IMG/VR virus record: IMGVR_UViG_3300042691_033556
Location: 1 to 29,769 of that record
Length of the DNA: 29,769 nt
Reading direction: 5' to 3' (one strand)
From: a virus
In this document: positions 3,362 to 20,158 of the stretch, piece by piece
Numbering within the stretch: position 1 is the stretch's first letter
How the letters are laid out: every line of letters starts with the position of its first letter
Notes under the pieces: model-generated
Seen by the model: the letters and a program-made list of their open reading frames with translations, nothing else
Database searches by the model: none
What the model was told of the DNA's origin: nothing
Position numbers and translations under genes: made by a program

Positions 3362-3678
3362 AGCCCCTCCGACCGCGGCTTGGTGCGGGGACGGAAGCGC
3401 CGGCAGTGGCGCGGCGTGATGCCGAAGCGCTTAGCCACCACGGCCACGGGCTCGCGCTGGAGCTGCTGCGCGATTGCGGCTTTCTGGCTTTCGCTCAAGC
3501 GCGGCCGGGCGCTGACATACACCACGGTGCCGGCGAAGGCGTGGCGCACCTGCTCGCGGCTGCTGCCGGCCAGGATGTGGTCGACGATCTCGCTGATCAC
3601 GTCGGCCTCGCCAGGCGCGGGCTGGTCGGCGAGCTTGGGCGGTTGCTGGCGGGCGGCGAATCGGCGCATGCGGGTCAC
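3358..3678 (-). CDS. Small HTH protein (Mor-like C-terminus), putative regulator
   Basis: The frame is open far upstream into TerL, but the likely start is GTG at 3678, which overlaps the TerL stop (GTGA) and gives 106 residues. The N-terminal half is helical (ADVISEIVDHILAGSSREQV). The C-terminal half, LSESQKAAIAQQLQREPVAV then AKRFGITPRHCRRFRPR, reads as a helix-turn-helix, reminiscent of Mor-type phage activators or resolvase-like HTH tails. The match is by eye and weak. Position after TerL and coupling to two more small genes suggest a regulatory or packaging-accessory set. Confidence 0.65.
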   Translation of the reverse strand: MTRMRRFAARQQPPKLADQPAPGEADVISEIVDHILAGSSREQVRHAFAGTVVYVSARPRLSESQKAAIAQQLQREPVAVVAKRFGITPRHCRRFRPRTKPRSEGL

Positions 3679-5621
3679 CAGTTGCGGGGCTTGGGACGGG
3701 CGGAGGTACGGGGCGCCGCGCGGGGCGCGGGCGCTGGGGAAAACGGCGAGGCAACGACGGGCGCGGCGGGCGTTGCCTGGGCGGCGTCGACCGGCTCGGG
3801 CGGCAGGCCGGCGCGCTGGCGCAGCACGGCCTCGCGGGTGTCCCAGTCGGTGCGGGTGTAGCGGTAGAGGCGCAGGTCGGGGTGATGGGCTGCGGCGTAG
3901 GCGTACACCCAGGTGTCGAGGGGCTCGTTGCGGGCGCCGCCGCGCTTCTCGAAGCGGTTCTTCGCCGGGTTGTAGGTCTCGCTGATGAGGCCGGTGAAGT
4001 ACTCGCGCGGCAGCTCGCTGCTGAAGTGCACCAGGCGGGCATCGGCCGGCTTCTCGGCGTCGGTGCTGAGGCGGCTGTACAGCAGGTGCTTCGACGCGAC
4101 GGTGCCCACGTGGTGGATGACCACGCCGCGCTTGTCGAGCCGGCCCTTCCAGTTGATGTCGACGGGCTTGCCCTTGCCGAGCACGGGGTGGTTGTTCGGA
4201 ACGGCGCCGAAGATGCACAGCGGGCGCCGCACGCGGTTCTGGGCCTTCGCGTCGCGCACGAAGGTCTTCACGGCTTCAGTGCGGTGGCCGCCGGCGTCGA
4301 TGGCGACGGCCTCGACCACCATGGGCGTGCCGAGGGCCGACTCGATCGGGCGGTTCAGCAGGTCAGTGAGCCGCGCCCATACCTCGGGCTCGGCGGGGTC
4401 GCCGGGCAGCTCGATGTAGTCGAGCACCCAGCTGGCCATGCCGCGGCCCCAGCCGACGATCTGCACGGCGAGGCGATTGTCCTGCGTGTCGACGCCGGCG
4501 GTGATGGCGAGCACGCCGGGCGGCGCGGTGCGAAGCAGGTAGAGCTCGGCGCGGTCGGCGATGACGTTGTGCTTCACCGCCCGCATGGCCGGGTCCTCCC
4601 AGGCTTCGGCGAGGCGGTCGTTCACGAAGGTCTTGAGCTTGGCCGGGTCGCCCTGGGCGTCGAGCCACATGCGCACCAGGTCGAGCCAGCGCGGGCCGAG
4701 GCCGATCGGGTAGTAGAGGCCGTTGACGGTGTAGCCGCGCACGGCCGATTCCGGGTTGCCCGGGATCCAGCGGCCGAGCTCGAGCATGCGCGGCTTGTGG
4801 TGTTCTTGGATGACCGCCCCGCACTCGCGGCAGGTGTACCAGCACTCGCGGCCGTCTGGCGTGTAATGCAGCCCGCCCCACTCCAGCGGCTGCTCGTGGC
4901 CGCAGTCCGGGCACGGCACGTGGTAGCGCCGCTGGTCCGACTTCATCCAGAGCTGCTCGATGCGGCTCAGGCCGCGGATCTGCGGCGTGCTGATGTAGAG
5001 GCGGCGGTAGTTGGCCGGGAAGGCGCTGGTGCGCCCTTCGAGCATGGCCACCGGGTCGTCGCCGCCGGTAAGACTGGTGGCGAACTCATCGAGCTCGTCG
5101 ACGATGAGGTTGCGCACCGTCGTGGACTTCAGGCGCTGCGGGCTGCCGGCGTGCTCGAGGTAGACCTGGCCGCCGGCGAAGTCCTTGAACTCGCGGCGGT
5201 TCGCGCCGTCGCGCGTCGCCGTGGTGGTGAGGGCGCGGCGCACGGCCGGCGTCTCCTCGATCATCGGGTTGAGCTTCTGGGCGATCCACTTGTTCATGGA
5301 CACCTCGCCCGGCAGGCACACCATTGTCGGCCCGGGGTTCTGGTCCATGACGTAGCCGAGAAAGTTCAGCGCGATCTCGGTCTTGCCGAGCTGGATCGGG
5401 AACATGCAGACGACGTCGCGCACCGCGCTGCGGGCGCTCAGGCAGTCCATGGGCTCGCGCAGCACCGGGTTGCGAGCGGTGCGCCAGCGGCCGGCCTCGG
5501 CGCTGCCCTTCGACGACAGCACGCGCTCGGTGTCGGCCCACTGGCTCACGCTCAGGGTCTTGCGCGGGGCGATGGCCCGAGCCGCTGCTCGGGCGATCAG
5601 AGGTGCGGCAGCGACGGTCAT
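3675..5621 (-). CDS. Terminase large subunit, lambda gpA family
   Basis: This is the ATP-driven DNA-packaging motor and nuclease that cuts phage DNA and pumps it into the prohead. Starting at the ATG at 5621 (strong GGAGG site, ATGA overlap with the previous gene) gives 648 residues, typical for gpA relatives. A Walker A-like QLGKTE lies at residues 77-82 and the Walker B region (LIVDELDEF) at ~172-180. A zinc-binding insert has CPDC at 237-240 and a second Cys cluster at 260-267. The C-terminal nuclease domain has acidic motifs in GVDTQDNRL and AIDAGGHRTE. The C-terminus ends in a Pro/Ala-rich tail, where gpA proteins usually contact the portal. Confidence 0.95.
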   Translation of the reverse strand: MTVAAAPLIARAAARAIAPRKTLSVSQWADTERVLSSKGSAEAGRWRTARNPVLREPMDCLSARSAVRDVVCMFPIQLGKTEIALNFLGYVMDQNPGPTMVCLPGEVSMNKWIAQKLNPMIEETPAVRRALTTTATRDGANRREFKDFAGGQVYLEHAGSPQRLKSTTVRNLIVDELDEFATSLTGGDDPVAMLEGRTSAFPANYRRLYISTPQIRGLSRIEQLWMKSDQRRYHVPCPDCGHEQPLEWGGLHYTPDGRECWYTCRECGAVIQEHHKPRMLELGRWIPGNPESAVRGYTVNGLYYPIGLGPRWLDLVRMWLDAQGDPAKLKTFVNDRLAEAWEDPAMRAVKHNVIADRAELYLLRTAPPGVLAITAGVDTQDNRLAVQIVGWGRGMASWVLDYIELPGDPAEPEVWARLTDLLNRPIESALGTPMVVEAVAIDAGGHRTEAVKTFVRDAKAQNRVRRPLCIFGAVPNNHPVLGKGKPVDINWKGRLDKRGVVIHHVGTVASKHLLYSRLSTDAEKPADARLVHFSSELPREYFTGLISETYNPAKNRFEKRGGARNEPLDTWVYAYAAAHHPDLRLYRYTRTDWDTREAVLRQRAGLPPEPVDAAQATPAAPVVASPFSPAPAPRAAPRTSARPKPRNW

Positions 5622-5866
5622 GAATCCTCCCGCGCATGTCGCTCGCTGATGACGGTGTACCGCACCCACGGGTAAGGCTCCTTACGGTCGTCCCTGATTC
5701 GACCAGAGCGCTCAAGCTCGCAAATCAGATTGCGCAGCCAGGCATGCTCGCTGAGGTCGAAGCACGAGATAAGCGGATTCACCTGAAGCGAGCACAGGAC
5801 GTTTTCCGCCGTTCGCTGGCTGGGCTTCAACTCAGAGACCGGCGTAGAGAATGAGCAGAGAATCAC
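5618..5866 (-). CDS. Small coupled protein between TerS and TerL, unknown
   Basis: This 82-residue ORF begins with GTG at 5866 overlapping the TerS stop and ends with TGA overlapping the TerL ATG. It therefore has classic four-base overlaps on both sides. The sequence (SELKPSQRTAENVLCSLQVN, HAWLRNLICELERSGRIRDD, WVRYTVIS) resembles a small winged helix in which the last strand pair forms the wing. An extra DNA-contacting packaging factor or a regulator is possible. No family is recognised with confidence. Confidence 0.75.
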   Translation of the reverse strand: MILCSFSTPVSELKPSQRTAENVLCSLQVNPLISCFDLSEHAWLRNLICELERSGRIRDDRKEPYPWVRYTVISERHAREDS

Positions 5867-6429
5867 GCCCCCTCCCCTGCGATGGCGCCGAGGCGGCGGC
5901 TGGTGTCTTCGAGCAGGAGCTCGACCGCTTCCGAGACGAGGCCCCGGCAGCGCGCCTCGCTTTGCTCCGCGGCGAGCTGCGGCCCGAGGGTGTCGGGCAG
6001 GCGCTCCAGCGCGTTGCGCAGCACCGTCATGGCGTTCGCCACCTGGGCGACCACGTCGTCGACGGCGAGCAGCTTGCCGTCGGCGATCGCGTTCTCTCGC
6101 TCGGCGGCCAACGCCTTCGCCTTCTCCGTGCGCTCGCGCCAGTAGCTGAAGCCGACGCTGGTGCTCTCCGGCTCCGGCCCCGCCTCGTCGACGGGCAGCT
6201 CCGCGGCCGGCAGGGCGCCACCGCGGGCCTCGGCGTGGCGGGCGGCGACGGCGGCCTTGGAGGGGTCGCGCGTGGCCTCGATGCGTGCCAGGGATTCGAC
6301 CACCCGCACCTTGCCGTCGGCGTCGAGCACGAGGCGGCCCGCTTTCTTCAGCGCGGTGACGTAGCTGCGCTGGACGCCGGCGATCGTGGCGAACTCGGCC
6401 TGCGTGGCCAGGGCGGGCAGTGAACTCAC
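5863..6429 (-). CDS. Terminase small subunit, Nu1-like
   Basis: TerS binds the packaging site and hands phage DNA to TerL. The GTG at 6429 is chosen because an AGGAGG site lies seven bases upstream and because it overlaps the previous stop (GTGA). This gives 188 residues, close to lambda Nu1 (181). Residues ~10-40 (TQAEFATIAGVQRSYVTALK) form a winged-helix/HTH similar to Nu1, with VRVVESLARIEATRDP following. The C-terminal half is helical and rich in Glu/Ala, suited to oligomerisation and TerL contact. The longer reading frame upstream is Arg/Ala/Cys-rich and is not likely coding in this frame. Confidence 0.88.
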   Translation of the reverse strand: MSSLPALATQAEFATIAGVQRSYVTALKKAGRLVLDADGKVRVVESLARIEATRDPSKAAVAARHAEARGGALPAAELPVDEAGPEPESTSVGFSYWRERTEKAKALAAERENAIADGKLLAVDDVVAQVANAMTVLRNALERLPDTLGPQLAAEQSEARCRGLVSEAVELLLEDTSRRLGAIAGEGA

Positions 6430-6740
6430 GACACCGCCTCCTGTTTTTCCACGAACAGGGGTGAATGAAGAATGTGCGCGGGCGCGAGCACGGTGCGGCA
6501 TGGCGTGCCGGCTGCGGGCCGCGATGTGCGCCACGTGCGGGGCGTGCGGGCTTGCGCGGGCGTATGCACACACACGCACGCGGGTGCGGGCACACGGGCG
6601 CGCTCGCGCACCTGCGCGCCGCCGCGCATTGCCGCCGAGCCCGGCGCACGGCGCGGGTTTGACCCCGCACAACACCCCGCACATGACCCCGCACGCCACC
6701 CCGCACGCGCCCCACCCCGCACGTCGAAAAGGGCGATCAT
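6426..6740 (-). CDS. Low-complexity coupled ORF carrying iterons, uncertain gene
   Basis: A 104-residue ORF starts at an ATG overlapping the primase stop (ATGA, 6740-6737) and stops at a TGA overlapping the TerS GTG (6429-6426). The double overlap argues for real translation. The product is odd: MIALFDVRG, then Ala/Gly/Arg/Cys/Pro-rich sequence without a recognisable fold, ending LFVEKQEAVS. The DNA may matter more than the protein, since it carries an iteron array and long alternating purine-pyrimidine stretches. It could keep ribosomes moving into terS across a cis-acting site. Confidence 0.5.
   Translation of the reverse strand: MIALFDVRGGARAGWRAGSCAGCCAGSNPRRAPGSAAMRGGAQVRERARVPAPACVCVHTPAQARTPRTWRTSRPAAGTPCRTVLAPAHILHSPLFVEKQEAVS
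6662..6722. repeat. Iteron array, five copies of ACCCCGCAC
   Basis: Exact copies of ACCCCGCAC begin at 6662, 6674, 6686, 6698 and 6714, so the spacing is 12, 12, 12 and 16 bp. Related GTGCGGGGC and GTGCGGGCT units lie in the opposite orientation at 6535-6552. The array sits just upstream of TerS and just downstream of the primase-helicase. It is therefore a candidate for either the terminase-binding packaging site (cosB/pac-like, as upstream of lambda Nu1) or a replication origin. Spacing near one helical turn favours a protein binding on one DNA face. Confidence 0.8.
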
Positions 6741-9169
6741 TCGATGCTCCCGGCGGCGTGGCCGCCCTGCCCGCGGTAGTCGCTCAGGCCCTGGCGAAAG
6801 CGCACGATGTGCTCGCCCCACCAGTTGGCGGCCGTGATCGAACCGTCGTATTCGGCGTTGCCGAAGCGCAGGACGCCATGCGGGCCGTGGGTGGTCTGGC
6901 CCATCAGGTAGCGCACCCGGCCGGCCTCCACGCCCTCGCGGCGCTCCAGCATCGGCACGAACTTCGACATCGGCGCCGGCCGGTGGCCGCTGCGCACGCA
7001 CCAGAGCTTGTAGGCCTCGTAGGCGTCCGCGCTGAGGCACGGCGAGGCCTTCAGGCCGATCAGCTCGCCGGCCACCAGCTCGCGGTGCCAGCGCACGACG
7101 CTGTCGAGCGCGAGGCCGATCAGCGCGTCGCGGGCTTCGGTCTTCGGCGGCGGCGTGCCCGGGTTGAAGTCGGCCAGGTCGACGTGCATCAGGTAGTCAT
7201 GCAGCGCCGCGGTGCCGCCGTTCTCGATCTCGGCCATGACCTCGGCGTAGAACTCGGGGCCCAGCTTCTTCGGGGTCCAGATCACCGCGTGGCGGCGGTC
7301 GTCTTCCTCGAGCACCACGGGCATCAGCTCGTTGGAGAGGAAGACCAGGTTCACGTGGTTCCGCTCGGTGTAGCTGGCCACGTTCTTCGGGTTGATCCGG
7401 ATCTCGGTGCCGGTGATCAGGCCCTTGAGTTTGTTCTTGACGTGGTGCACGTCAGAGCGCGCGATCACCTCGTCGGCGATCAGGAAGAGCTTCTTCGAGG
7501 CCCAGTCGTTGAACTTGTCCTCGATGGCGTCCTGGTCGAGCACCCGGCCGTAGCTGCCGTAGATGCGCATCACGGTCTCGAAGAACAGGTTCTTGCCCGT
7601 GCCCTGGCCGCCGTGGATCACCAGCGTGGTCTTCATCTTCGTGCCGGGCCGCTGGATCGGCATGGCCACCCAGCGCAGCACCCACTGGTACAGGGCCTCG
7701 GCGTTCTGTTCGCCCGAGCACATGTAGCGCAGCAGCTCGAGCAGCTTGTCGCAGCTGCCGGGCGCCGGCTTGGTCGGCCAGCCTGCCCACAGGTTGCAGG
7801 TGATCATCGGGTCGCGCTCGGTCGGATCGAAGCCGACGTTGTCGATGCGCACCATCCGGCGATCGGGGTGCTCCATCCACGCGCGGTGGATGTACTTGTT
7901 CGCGCAGGCGTCGCGCATATCGCCGAGCGACAGCAGCACGCGCAGGTCGTGATCGAACGCCGTGCTGCCGTGCGCGTAGATCAGCGAGTAGCGGCGCAGC
8001 AGGTCGTCGACGGCCTGCAGCGGCTTCAGCGGCGCGGAAGCGCCCCCCTCCCCCTGCGTGGTGGACGGCGCGGAAGGCGCACGGCCCCGCGCGTCCCAGC
8101 CCAGCTCGGCGAGGCGAGCTTCAAGCTGCCGACGGACGACGTGCAGGCCTTCGAGCAGGTGCAGGTCGTTGAAGTCGGCCAGCTTCTGCTGCTTGTCGAA
8201 GAACGCCGAGCGCCGGGCGACGTCATCTGCGAACGCAGGTACGCACCACGCGCCGTTGACGGCGAGCGCGGCGACACTCGCTGCGAGCATCCCTTCGTTC
8301 CTTGCTCCGTGCGCTTGCCCGCAAGACGAACACGTCTCGGGGTCAGCGATGAGATCGACCGTAAGCTTCTTGCACGCTTGGCAGCGGCGGAAGCGGTCGT
8401 CCTCTCCGCAGATCAACAGCTTCGCCCGCTTGTAGCGCTTGGCCAGCGCCTGGGCGACGGGCATCAGGTTGCCGGCGTCCCAAGCCACCACCGTGCACAG
8501 GCCGGTGGCCTCGTGCAGCGAAGCGGCCGTGGCGTAGCCCTCGGCGATCAGGATGACGGCCGAAGCCGCCGGCGAGCCCAGCACGAAGAAGTGGCCCTTC
8601 TTCGCCAGCCCGGCCGGCCAGAATTCCTTGGCGGTACGGCGCGACGCTTCCGCCGCCTTGCCTGCGCGGATGATCTGCAGGCCGTGCACCCGGCCGTCGA
8701 CGTCGAGCAGCGGGATGATCACCTCGCCGGCGCCGCCGAAGCGCACGCCATGCGCGCCGACACCCTTGCGCGCCAGGTACTCGCTCGTGCCCTCGGGCGC
8801 GGCCTTCGCCCAGCCCGCCGCCGCGCGACGCGCCGCGGCTTCCGCCGCCCGTGCACGCTCGCGCTCGGCGGCCTTGCGGTCCTCGGCGATGCGGGCCTTC
8901 AACGCAGCGCGCTGGTCGGCGCTCATCTGCGACTTGCGCACCTCGACCTTCTGCGTGTTGCTGTCGCTGCCACGCCACACGCCGTAGCTGCCGACGATCA
9001 GCAGCTCGCCGCTGTCGGTGCGCAGCTCGTGCAGCGAATACCAGCCCCGCTTCTCGCGGTCGCCCTCCACCTTGCACCGGCGCATGCGCCCGATCTCGAG
9101 GTGGTCGACCTCCAGCCCCGCCTCGTGGAGCTGCTTCAGGACGTCTTCATAGTTGGAGCCCAGCGCCAC
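6737..9169 (-). CDS. Phage primase-helicase (Toprim-like N-terminus, P4-type SF3 helicase)
   Basis: This 810-residue protein probably primes and unwinds DNA at the phage origin. A Toprim-like region has VILIAEGYATAASLHEA at ~205-221 and WDAGN further on. A four-Cys zinc ribbon is inserted at ~263-283 (CQAC, CSSC). The C-terminal helicase has Walker A GGQGTGKN at 520-527, Walker B LFLIADE at ~560 and a downstream LVFLSNELMPV sensor-like motif, typical of P4/D5 or DUF5906-type helicases. Start is GTG at 9169 with a GGGAG site upstream. The canonical N-terminal CHC2 zinc finger is not visible. It sits at the end of the early minus-strand operon, next to the iterons. Confidence 0.9.
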   Translation of the reverse strand: MALGSNYEDVLKQLHEAGLEVDHLEIGRMRRCKVEGDREKRGWYSLHELRTDSGELLIVGSYGVWRGSDSNTQKVEVRKSQMSADQRAALKARIAEDRKAAERERARAAEAAARRAAAGWAKAAPEGTSEYLARKGVGAHGVRFGGAGEVIIPLLDVDGRVHGLQIIRAGKAAEASRRTAKEFWPAGLAKKGHFFVLGSPAASAVILIAEGYATAASLHEATGLCTVVAWDAGNLMPVAQALAKRYKRAKLLICGEDDRFRRCQACKKLTVDLIADPETCSSCGQAHGARNEGMLAASVAALAVNGAWCVPAFADDVARRSAFFDKQQKLADFNDLHLLEGLHVVRRQLEARLAELGWDARGRAPSAPSTTQGEGGASAPLKPLQAVDDLLRRYSLIYAHGSTAFDHDLRVLLSLGDMRDACANKYIHRAWMEHPDRRMVRIDNVGFDPTERDPMITCNLWAGWPTKPAPGSCDKLLELLRYMCSGEQNAEALYQWVLRWVAMPIQRPGTKMKTTLVIHGGQGTGKNLFFETVMRIYGSYGRVLDQDAIEDKFNDWASKKLFLIADEVIARSDVHHVKNKLKGLITGTEIRINPKNVASYTERNHVNLVFLSNELMPVVLEEDDRRHAVIWTPKKLGPEFYAEVMAEIENGGTAALHDYLMHVDLADFNPGTPPPKTEARDALIGLALDSVVRWHRELVAGELIGLKASPCLSADAYEAYKLWCVRSGHRPAPMSKFVPMLERREGVEAGRVRYLMGQTTHGPHGVLRFGNAEYDGSITAANWWGEHIVRFRQGLSDYRGQGGHAAGSIE

Positions 9170-18356: not shown

Positions 18357-18797
18357 ATGTCCGCCAACCTTCCGCCTATCGTGAATCTTGCCGAGCGCCT
18401 GATGCTTGAGGTGGAGCGTGCTGTACGCGCGTTCCCGCGCTACCACAAGTACAGCCTTGGCCAAGAGCTGCGCCAGCAGTGCCGCGACTTGGTGCGCCTG
18501 TGCTATCGGGCGTGGCGGGCGAGGGACCAGCAGCACGTGCTGCTCCCCGCGCTGGTGGATGGTGTCGACGACATCAAGCTCAGCCTGCAGCTTGGCAGCC
18601 AGCTCCGCGCGTTCCGCAGCTTCGACCAGTTCGAGGCCCTGCTGCGCGTCGCGCTTGATCTTGGCCGCCAAGCTGGCGGATGGCGCAGGCAAGTCCTTTC
18701 GCACCCCAAGGGCCAGAATCCCGAGCCCGCGCCGGCCCGGGAGCGTGCCCACACACTGAGTACCCGCTCCGCCTCAACCCAAGGGGCCAACGCATGA
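18357..18797 (+). CDS. avd: DGR accessory variability determinant, Avd-like (four-helix-bundle)
   Basis: A 146-residue protein whose first ~115 residues are helical: NLAERLMLEVERAVRAFPRY, HKYSLGQELRQQCRDLVRLC, then QQHVLLPALVDGVDDIKLSL and SFDQFEALLRVALDLGRQAG. FP-x-HKYSLG-x-ELR is the signature of Avd-like four-helix-bundle proteins, which in Bordetella phage form a pentamer that binds the RT and TR RNA. The C-terminal ~35 residues are Pro/Arg/Ser-rich and unusual. No clear ribosome site precedes the ATG at 18357. The stop overlaps the RT start (ATGA), linking expression of the two partners. Confidence 0.9.
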   Translation: MSANLPPIVNLAERLMLEVERAVRAFPRYHKYSLGQELRQQCRDLVRLCYRAWRARDQQHVLLPALVDGVDDIKLSLQLGSQLRAFRSFDQFEALLRVALDLGRQAGGWRRQVLSHPKGQNPEPAPARERAHTLSTRSASTQGANA

Positions 18798-20158
18798 CGA
18801 AGCCGCGCCGCCATACAGGCCGTTCGGACGGGTCGCAAGCGAGCGGGGATGCGTGGTCCTCGTCCCACGCCTGGTACGTCAATTTCAATAACGGCAATTG
18901 CAACAACGACAACCGCGACAACAACAACGGCCTCGTCCGCGCGGTGCGTTCGGTGCCGGCCGGTGAGTGTGAGGGTGCCGCGGCCCAGGGCGTGAACCTT
19001 CGCGCCCTGCATGCCGCATGGAAGGAAGCGCGGCGCGGCAAGTCGCCCAGCCGTGACCAGCTCGCGTTCGATGCGCGATGGGCCGAGGGGCTGGCGGCAC
19101 TCGAAAGCGAGCTGCGCAGCGGCACGTGGAGGCCGCGCCCGAGCACCTGCTTTGTCGCGACCCGCCCGAAGGCCCGCGAGATTCATGCCCCGCACTTCGC
19201 CGATCGCGTGGTTCATCACTGGCTGGTGCCCCAGCTCGAAGCCATCTGGGAGCCTCGCTTCATCCACGACAGCTACGCGAATCGCCGTGGCAAGGGCAGC
19301 CATGCGGCCGTGCAGCGCGTTGAAGGCTTCGTCCGCCAGGTAGCGAGCGGCCAGGGCGGGGGCTGGTTCCTGCAGCTCGACATCCACAACTTCTTCGTCA
19401 GCATTCACCGGGCCACCCTGTATGGCTTGCTGCGGCCGGTGACGCGCACGGCCGGCCTGCACCTCGATGCCCAGCGTGCCGCCCATGCGCTGCTCCGCGG
19501 GCCGGCACTGGCCGCCGGAGTGCACCAGGTGGGCACCGATGCGGAGCACGCCGTGGTGCCGCCCCACAAGCGGCTGGCCAATGCGTCGCCCGGCTGCGGC
19601 CTGCCGGTTGGCAACCTCAGCAGCCAGTTCTTCGCCAACGTCTACCTCGATCCGCTGGACCAGTTCATCAAGCGAACTCTGCGCGCGAAGCGCTACGTGC
19701 GCTACGTCGACGACTTCGTGCTGGTGCACCACGACCGCAGCCAGCTCGAGGCGTGGTGGCGCGACATCGAGGCGTTCCTCGGGCGCGTGCTTAAGCTCTC
19801 GCTGAAGCCCGGCGCGATGATCCGCCCGCTCGGCGACGGCATCGATTTTCTGGGCTACGTGATCCGCCCCACGCACACCATCACGCGGCGGCGCGTTGTG
19901 GCCCACCTGCGCGAGTCGCTCGCCGCTTGGGAGGCTCAGCACGTCCGCGAGGGCGCCATCGAGTGCACGCCGCGGGAGCTCGAAGCCGTCAAGGCGAAGC
20001 TGGCCAGCTTTCGTGGCCACCTGCAGCACGCGCGGGCGCATCGCCTGCAGCAAGCCGTTGCGCGCCGATTCCCTTGGGCATTGGCACTGGACGTCCGCCG
20101 CAGGTTTCGGCCGGCACAGCTGGACCACCCCATTTCAATCCGCTGGAGGACGGCATGA
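18794..20158 (+). CDS. DGR reverse transcriptase
   Basis: From the ATG at 18794 the protein has 454 residues. Motifs: LDIHNFF with catalytic Asp196; VGNLSSQFFANVYL at ~272-285, with GNLSSQ at 273-278, the DGR-type motif 4; YVDD at 304-307; LGYVI at 353-357. All catalytic residues are present, so the enzyme should be active in copying TR RNA with adenine-directed errors. The ATG forms an ATGA overlap with avd but places the TR inside the gene, as residues 20-57 (Asn-rich). A GTG at 18992, after the TR, would give a 388-residue protein starting next to the conserved ALHAAWKEARRGK; its ribosome site is poor. The stop overlaps the HNH gene. Confidence 0.95.
   Translation: MTKPRRHTGRSDGSQASGDAWSSSHAWYVNFNNGNCNNDNRDNNNGLVRAVRSVPAGECEGAAAQGVNLRALHAAWKEARRGKSPSRDQLAFDARWAEGLAALESELRSGTWRPRPSTCFVATRPKAREIHAPHFADRVVHHWLVPQLEAIWEPRFIHDSYANRRGKGSHAAVQRVEGFVRQVASGQGGGWFLQLDIHNFFVSIHRATLYGLLRPVTRTAGLHLDAQRAAHALLRGPALAAGVHQVGTDAEHAVVPPHKRLANASPGCGLPVGNLSSQFFANVYLDPLDQFIKRTLRAKRYVRYVDDFVLVHHDRSQLEAWWRDIEAFLGRVLKLSLKPGAMIRPLGDGIDFLGYVIRPTHTITRRRVVAHLRESLAAWEAQHVREGAIECTPRELEAVKAKLASFRGHLQHARAHRLQQAVARRFPWALALDVRRRFRPAQLDHPISIRWRTA
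18851..18964 (+). repeat. DGR template repeat TR
   Basis: This is the invariant copy used as RNA template. It has 24 adenines, all between 18867 and 18927, in ten AAY codons plus CAC, TAC and two GAC when read in the frame of the targets. All these codons end in C or T, so adenine changes can never create a stop. Both VRs align to it without gaps, and homology ends sharply at 18851 because the upstream DUF1566 sequence is absent. It lies at the 5' end of the RT reading frame and in the same frame as the VRs. Confidence 0.95.

What the first reader, a model, noticed from the sequence alone, without database searches (positions are those of the whole stretch)
6426..6740. Iteron array inside a doubly overlapping, strange ORF between primase and terS
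Five ACCCCGCAC copies with 12-bp periodicity, plus inverted relatives at 6535-6552 and alternating purine-pyrimidine stretches near 6560-6610, lie in an ORF that overlaps both neighbours by four bases. The protein is low-complexity. I infer a cis site (packaging or origin) kept translatable so that ribosome coupling to terS is not lost.
Basis: partly seen in the sequence, partly recalled or inferred. Interest (0 to 1): 0.62.

Follow-up and report, generated by a model that had tools for sequence, protein, structure and literature searches.

The report
Hidden phage replication origin beside primase
The repeats are very probably the phage's DNA replication start site: a two-armed set of short repeats that always sits just after the gene for the enzyme that appears to read it, here tucked inside a stretch kept translatable but not conserved as a protein.

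Summary
In detail: five ACCCCGCAC copies, inverted copies at 6535-6551, an alternating purine-pyrimidine stretch, and a 104-aa ORF overlapping both neighbours by 4 bp. Comparison with relatives identifies it as an iteron replication origin of the SaPI/PICI kind, read by the primase-helicase encoded immediately upstream. (1) In 133 of 133 distinct relatives an iteron array lies just downstream of the primase gene: 131 by a blind 7-mer test, 2 by inspection after an extra ORF. It stays there when terS is 0.5-3.5 kb away, so it belongs to the primase, not to packaging. (2) The arms point at each other (1209 copies correctly oriented, 35 not) across a ~85-bp spacer. (3) The iteron sequence differs between phages and covaries with the primase's C-terminal winged helix (partial r 0.31, p 0.0005), not with the TerS N-terminus. 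(4) The predicted fold matches NrS-1 helicase (Z 25.7) and SaPI5 PriRep (Z 17.3). The ORF protein is not conserved, but its frame is kept open and usually ends at the terS start. Unlike PICI origins, the spacer is not AT-rich but alternating purine-pyrimidine. No experiment was available; binding and replication are inferred.

The parts
6737..9169 (-). Primase-helicase (Toprim-type primase region, DUF5906/D5-like SF3 helicase, C-terminal winged helix); proposed origin-binding initiator
   Evidence: Pfam DUF5906 1.4e-22; PHROG 2249 DNA primase 8e-153; AF2 model of residues 380-810, pLDDT 90.5, matches NrS-1 CTR and SaPI5 PriRep
6866..7033 (-). Codons for primase residues 713-768: winged helix (two helices, two-stranded wing) carrying most residues that covary with the iteron (714, 735, 751, 762, 764, 765, 767; 698 and 769 flank it)
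6662..6722 (+). Iteron arm 1: five ACCCCGCAC (GTGCGGGGT in gene sense) at 6662, 6674, 6686, 6698, 6714
6552..6661 (.). Spacer between the arms: alternating purine-pyrimidine, GC-rich, candidate unwinding region; holds one further inverted copy (6584-6591)
   Evidence: alternation 0.736, run 23, top 0.3% of the window
6535..6551 (+). Iteron arm 2, opposite orientation: GTGCGGGG 6535-6542 and GTGCGGGC 6544-6551; weaker relative at 6474-6481
6426..6740 (-). 104-codon ORF spanning the origin, ATGA overlap with primase, GTGA overlap with terS; probably a translated spacer, not a conserved protein
5863..6429 (-).
   Evidence: PHROG 57, 2.2e-28; N-terminal region shows no covariation

Best explanation
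The array is the phage's origin of replication. The primase-helicase encoded immediately upstream is its initiator: the C-terminal winged helix binds the 7-9 bp iterons, two oppositely facing groups of iterons position two helicase assemblies head to head, the DNA in the ~85-bp spacer (an alternating purine-pyrimidine tract rather than an AT-rich element) is opened, the rings load, and the fused primase starts synthesis. Because the origin lies in a polycistronic stretch directly before terS, it is kept free of stops in one frame and bordered by start/stop overlaps, so ribosomes can cross it. Shown by computation: conserved position, two-arm layout, iteron divergence between phages with uniformity within each, covariation with the primase winged helix, frame openness. 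Inferred: binding, melting, ring loading, origin activity, ribosome coupling.
For: Blind 7-mer test: 131 of 133 distinct post-primase regions hold a repeat count above every control window of their own locus; the two exceptions, L141 and L142, have arrays after an extra ORF. The array stays with the primase when terS is 0.5-3.5 kb away. Orientation: 1209 copies in the expected arm direction, 35 not. Iteron sequence changes between phages, 17 core types and 27 parsimony changes, and covaries with primase residues 698-769: partial Mantel r 0.31, p 0.0005 given the helicase core, against r -0.03, p 0.70 for the TerS N-terminus. Residue 751 is Arg in 101 of 102 loci with GTGC iterons and is Ser, Pro, Val, Gln or Lys in 8 of the 9 whose iteron differs there; each trait changes 7 times on the tree, mostly together. 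Fold: NrS-1 CTR Z 25.7, SaPI5 PriRep Z 17.3. Arrays also follow the D5-type helicase gene of named temperate phages, and are absent after the primases of three phages with a more distant primase. In PICIs and SaPIs the region just 3' of pri-rep with two iteron sets is the proven origin (PMC6092414; PMC7581432).
Against: No experimental data for any of these phages were found. GC skew of phage S1 shows no switch at the array. The spacer is not AT-rich (GC 0.616 against 0.619 for the loci). Exact dyad symmetry of the two arms is not above chance. In the window itself the second arm is weaker (3-4 copies) than in most relatives. The relatives are not independent: 56 clusters at 80% and 14 at 60% primase identity. 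L160 breaks the residue-751 rule (iteron GTGA, Arg) and L124 is a second outlier (GTGC, Gly).
Confidence: 0.88

Rival explanations
1. Packaging site (cos/pac): TerS, a Nu1-like subunit of a gpA-type terminase, binds the iterons and packaging starts here, as lambda cosB lies just before nu1.
For: Position directly upstream of terS in the window and in about half of the relatives; the large subunit is of the gpA family.
Against: The array stays at the primase when terS is up to 3.5 kb away, and no comparable array lies in any other window of those loci. The iteron sequence shows no covariation with the TerS N-terminal region (p 0.70); whole-TerS association is weak (partial r 0.09) and vanishes given the primase C-terminus.
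Confidence: 0.04
2. The iterons are an operator or copy-number control site bound by the primase (autoregulation or handcuffing) rather than the initiation site itself.
For: Covariation shows who probably binds, not what the binding does; iterons of plasmids serve both roles (general knowledge).
Against: The site lies downstream of the gene, not at its promoter; the homologous PICI site directly 3' of pri-rep is the origin in plasmid replication tests (PMC6092414).
Confidence: 0.06
3. The ORF encodes a real small protein and the repeats are low-complexity coding sequence.
For: The frame is open in 62 of 62 near loci; pN/pS 0.71 in the ORF frame against 0.96-0.97 in the other frames.
Against: No family match. 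In 24 equal-length homologues the nonsynonymous difference is about six times that of primase while synonymous difference is half that of the neighbouring genes, so DNA rather than protein is conserved; in several relatives the array precedes a different gene.
Confidence: 0.02

Closest known systems
SaPI / PICI replication origin (pri-rep-ori)
   Same: Site directly 3' of a primase-helicase initiator gene; two sets of short iterons flanking a central region; iteron sequence differs among elements; initiator helicase of the D5 type whose C-terminal domain binds the origin (PMC6092414, PMC7581432; fold match to SaPI5 PriRep).
   Different: Full-size temperate phages rather than satellites; spacer not AT-rich but alternating purine-pyrimidine; origin lies inside an ORF kept open between two overlapping genes, next to terS.
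Phage P4 alpha protein with its origin and crr iterons
   Same: Primase-helicase initiator that recognises short iterons (general knowledge; mentioned in PMC6092414).
   Different: P4 uses sites separate from each other (general knowledge); here there is one two-armed array directly after the gene. P4 was not compared here.
NrS-1 phage primase-polymerase C-terminal helicase
   Same: Closest solved fold of the helicase and C-terminal part (Z 25.7; sequence E 3.7e-24).
   Different: NrS-1 has two copies of an 8-nt recognition sequence in the genome centre (PMC7102993), not a two-armed array of many iterons.
Lambda cosB / Nu1 binding sites
   Same: Short repeats next to the small terminase gene of a gpA-type terminase.
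   Different: The array follows primase, not terS, and does not covary with the TerS N-terminus.

Membership tests
PICI/SaPI-type replication origin | Lies immediately 3' of the replication initiator (pri-rep) gene | tested here: met
   131/133 by blind test, 2/2 exceptions after an extra ORF
PICI/SaPI-type replication origin | Two sets of iterons flanking a central region | tested here: met
   1209 correctly against 35 wrongly oriented copies; median spacer 85 bp
PICI/SaPI-type replication origin | Central region is AT-rich | tested here: not met
   Spacer GC 0.616 against locus 0.619; alternating purine-pyrimidine instead
PICI/SaPI-type replication origin | Initiator has the D5/SF3-type helicase fold | tested here: met
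   SaPI5 PriRep Z 17.3, NrS-1 CTR Z 25.7
PICI/SaPI-type replication origin | Initiator C-terminal domain binds the iterons | tested here: inconclusive
   Supported by covariation only; binding itself needs an experiment
PICI/SaPI-type replication origin | Initiator gene plus site drives autonomous plasmid replication | not testable with these tools
   needs an experiment
Lambda-type cos / TerS binding site | Site is linked to the small terminase gene | tested here: not met
   Array stays with primase when terS is 0.5-3.5 kb away
Lambda-type cos / TerS binding site | Virion DNA end (staggered nick) at or beside the site | not testable with these tools
   No virion reads; the S1 genome paper is not held
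Small protein-coding gene | Amino-acid sequence under clear purifying selection | tested here: not met
   pN/pS 0.71 with halved synonymous rate; primase 0.06, terS 0.53; only weak protein constraint possible

The most novel reading that the evidence does not exclude
A large, unannotated class of temperate-phage replicons in Proteobacteria uses a PICI-like two-armed iteron origin whose opening region is an alternating purine-pyrimidine (Z-DNA-prone) tract instead of an AT-rich one, with iteron specificity rewritten repeatedly by changes in the wing of the initiator's winged helix (residue 751 read against iteron base 5), and with the origin embedded in a reading frame kept open so that translation can cross it.
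Probability: 0.45. Interest if true: 0.75.

Novelty: new variant of a known kind. Interest (0 to 1): 0.62.

Why it matters
[quoted passage not shown] Finding the same plan in ordinary temperate phages links satellites to full phages, gives an origin for a large group of phages annotated only with 'DNA primase', offers over a hundred natural iteron/initiator pairs from which a DNA-recognition code can be read, and raises a testable question about how an origin opens without an AT-rich element.

Tried and rejected
GC skew as an origin test: S1 shows a one-sided skew with no switch at the array; in the window the cumulative skew peaks near 6-8.5 kb, but the structural genes and primase left of there are on the minus strand and several genes right of there are on the plus strand, so it is not usable. 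Exact dyad symmetry of the two arms: looked striking by eye, not significant against random placement within arms, so only opposite orientation is claimed. Single-strand folding of the region: z -1.9, not distinctive. Close TerS homologues in INPHARED: none. S1 genome termini: paper not held and the review passages shown do not give them. First orientation/spacer script crashed after printing the orientation counts and was redone for the spacer. Literature searches for an earlier description of this origin in temperate phages found none in the open-access library, which is not proof of absence.

Full report
Context. The window is a linear IMG/VR virus record of 29,769 bases. On the minus strand it carries, in order of transcription, a primase-helicase (6737-9169), the 104-aa ORF (6426-6740), terS (5863-6429), a gpA-type terL (3675-5669) and a portal protein.

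Protein or DNA? Stenotrophomonas phage S1 has the same gene order, with gp2 (2454-2804) at the ORF's position; its protein is unlike the window's, but its DNA holds many GTGCGGG direct and CCCGCAC inverted copies. In 24 equal-length homologues of the S1 group the ORF frame has no stop while the other frames have 1-7; pN/pS is 0.71 (primase 0.06, terS 0.53), and synonymous difference is 0.167 against 0.34 in the neighbours. The DNA is constrained, the protein barely. Across 62 loci with terS within 430 bp all have an open frame from the primase stop across at least 280 bp, where about one third would be expected for a given frame (the frame was the best of those with a start codon near the stop, so the true expectation is somewhat higher); 51 of 58 ORFs end within 15 nt of the terS start. 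So the frame seems to be maintained. In loci with terS further away the array often lies in frame with a small conserved downstream gene (motif LFPGLR..ITLTG), whose own ATG probably follows the array.

Which gene does the array belong to? TerL and primase searches gave about 170 loci. A blind test took the 350 bp after each primase stop, found its commonest 7-mer and compared it with all other windows of the same locus: in 131 of 133 distinct regions no control window reached the count. L141 and L142 failed only because an extra ORF follows the primase; arrays of TGTGCAGGG and ATATACCGG type follow it (by inspection). The distance from array to terS ranges from about 0.3 to 3.5 kb, while the array stays at the primase. 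The layout is constant: copies in gene sense at about +15 to +110, a spacer with a median of 85 bp, and copies in the opposite sense from about +165 to +290; 1209 copies are oriented this way and 35 are not.

Who reads the iterons? The iteron differs between phages but is uniform within each: TGTGCGGGN, TGTGCAGGG, TGTGCGGTA, TGTGCGGCA, TGTGCCGGG, TGTGAGGCA, TGTGGGGTA, TGTTCCGCA, TTATTACG and others. Among 50 non-redundant loci, the primase columns with the highest entropy-corrected mutual information with the iteron core lie at 698-769, while the helicase core and TerS sit at baseline. Partial Mantel correlation with iteron distance, given the helicase core, is 0.31 (p 0.0005) for the primase C-terminus, 0.17 (p 0.0035) for the 352-440 linker, 0.09 (p 0.026) for all TerS and -0.03 (p 0.70) for the TerS N-terminus; the TerS signal is -0.06 given the C-terminus. 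Residue 751 is Arg in 101 of 102 loci with GTGC iterons; of nine loci with another base there, eight have Ser, Pro, Val, Gln or Lys and one (L160) has Arg. Both traits change about seven times on a helicase-core tree, mostly on the same branches. Residue 762 is Gly in 71 of 73 loci with G at iteron base 6 and mostly Asn or Gln when it is A or C. An AlphaFold2 model of residues 380-810 (pLDDT 90.5) shows these residues in and beside a winged helix, at helices 713-727 and 734-745 and strands 748-756 and 759-768. Best fold matches are NrS-1 CTR (Z 25.7), ASFV PrimPol (Z 17.3) and SaPI5 PriRep (Z 17.3).

What opens the DNA? The spacer is not AT-rich. It is an alternating purine-pyrimidine tract: alternation 0.686 against 0.532 for the loci, longest run 17.3 against 6.7, individually significant in 92% of 118 loci and 93% of 44 non-redundant ones (run length); 0.736 in the window. 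The iterons themselves alternate, and part of the signal may come from decayed iterons. That this tract is the unwinding element, or forms Z-DNA, is inference.

Range. Related helicases in named temperate phages (Halomonas H4907, Pseudomonas pAN, PG1, Turba, Moraxella Mcat4; unannotated KT1 has a weaker repeat cluster near the gene) are followed by such arrays; three phages with a more distant primase (Mano, Persinger, Murka) are not.

Comparison. The plan matches the SaPI/PICI origin, where the region immediately 3' of pri-rep with two iteron sets is the proven origin and the initiator's C-terminal domain binds it (PMC6092414; PMC7581432). It differs in host element, spacer and embedding in an ORF, so I file it as a variant that works like a PICI origin rather than as a member. 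All functional steps remain to be tested at the bench. Sample dependence is the main statistical caveat: 56 primase clusters at 80% identity, 37 at 70%, 14 at 60%.

Noticed in passing
window 18680-20158 (+): Reverse transcriptase ORF (PHROG 1423, 3.7e-101; PADLOC RT 3.8e-38); whether it belongs to a diversity-generating element or a defence system was not determined. A 15-bp tandem repeat lies inside it at 18876-18927.
   Followed up: partly
L005 about 5785-6785: The terL of a close relative appears to be interrupted in the Walker A region (QLGK|TE) by an in-frame insertion of about 330 residues that reads like an intein (ends FIPTHN); the window's terL lacks it.
   Followed up: no
L018, L031, L111, L120, L123, L128, L135, L149, L157 after the array: A small conserved gene (about 65 aa, motif CTxENAxxxxxxVKxWPxLxxLVxxLQxxxLFPGLRxxxITLTG) follows the origin in many relatives; absent between primase and terS in the window.
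   Followed up: partly
L141 2368-2903, L142 5945-6496: An extra ORF between primase and origin, with a P-loop-like GPQGCGKTT motif in L141.
   Followed up: no
L007 (phage S1) whole record: GC skew is positive in nearly the whole genome irrespective of gene strand, which may point to a mainly one-directional mode of replication.
   Followed up: no
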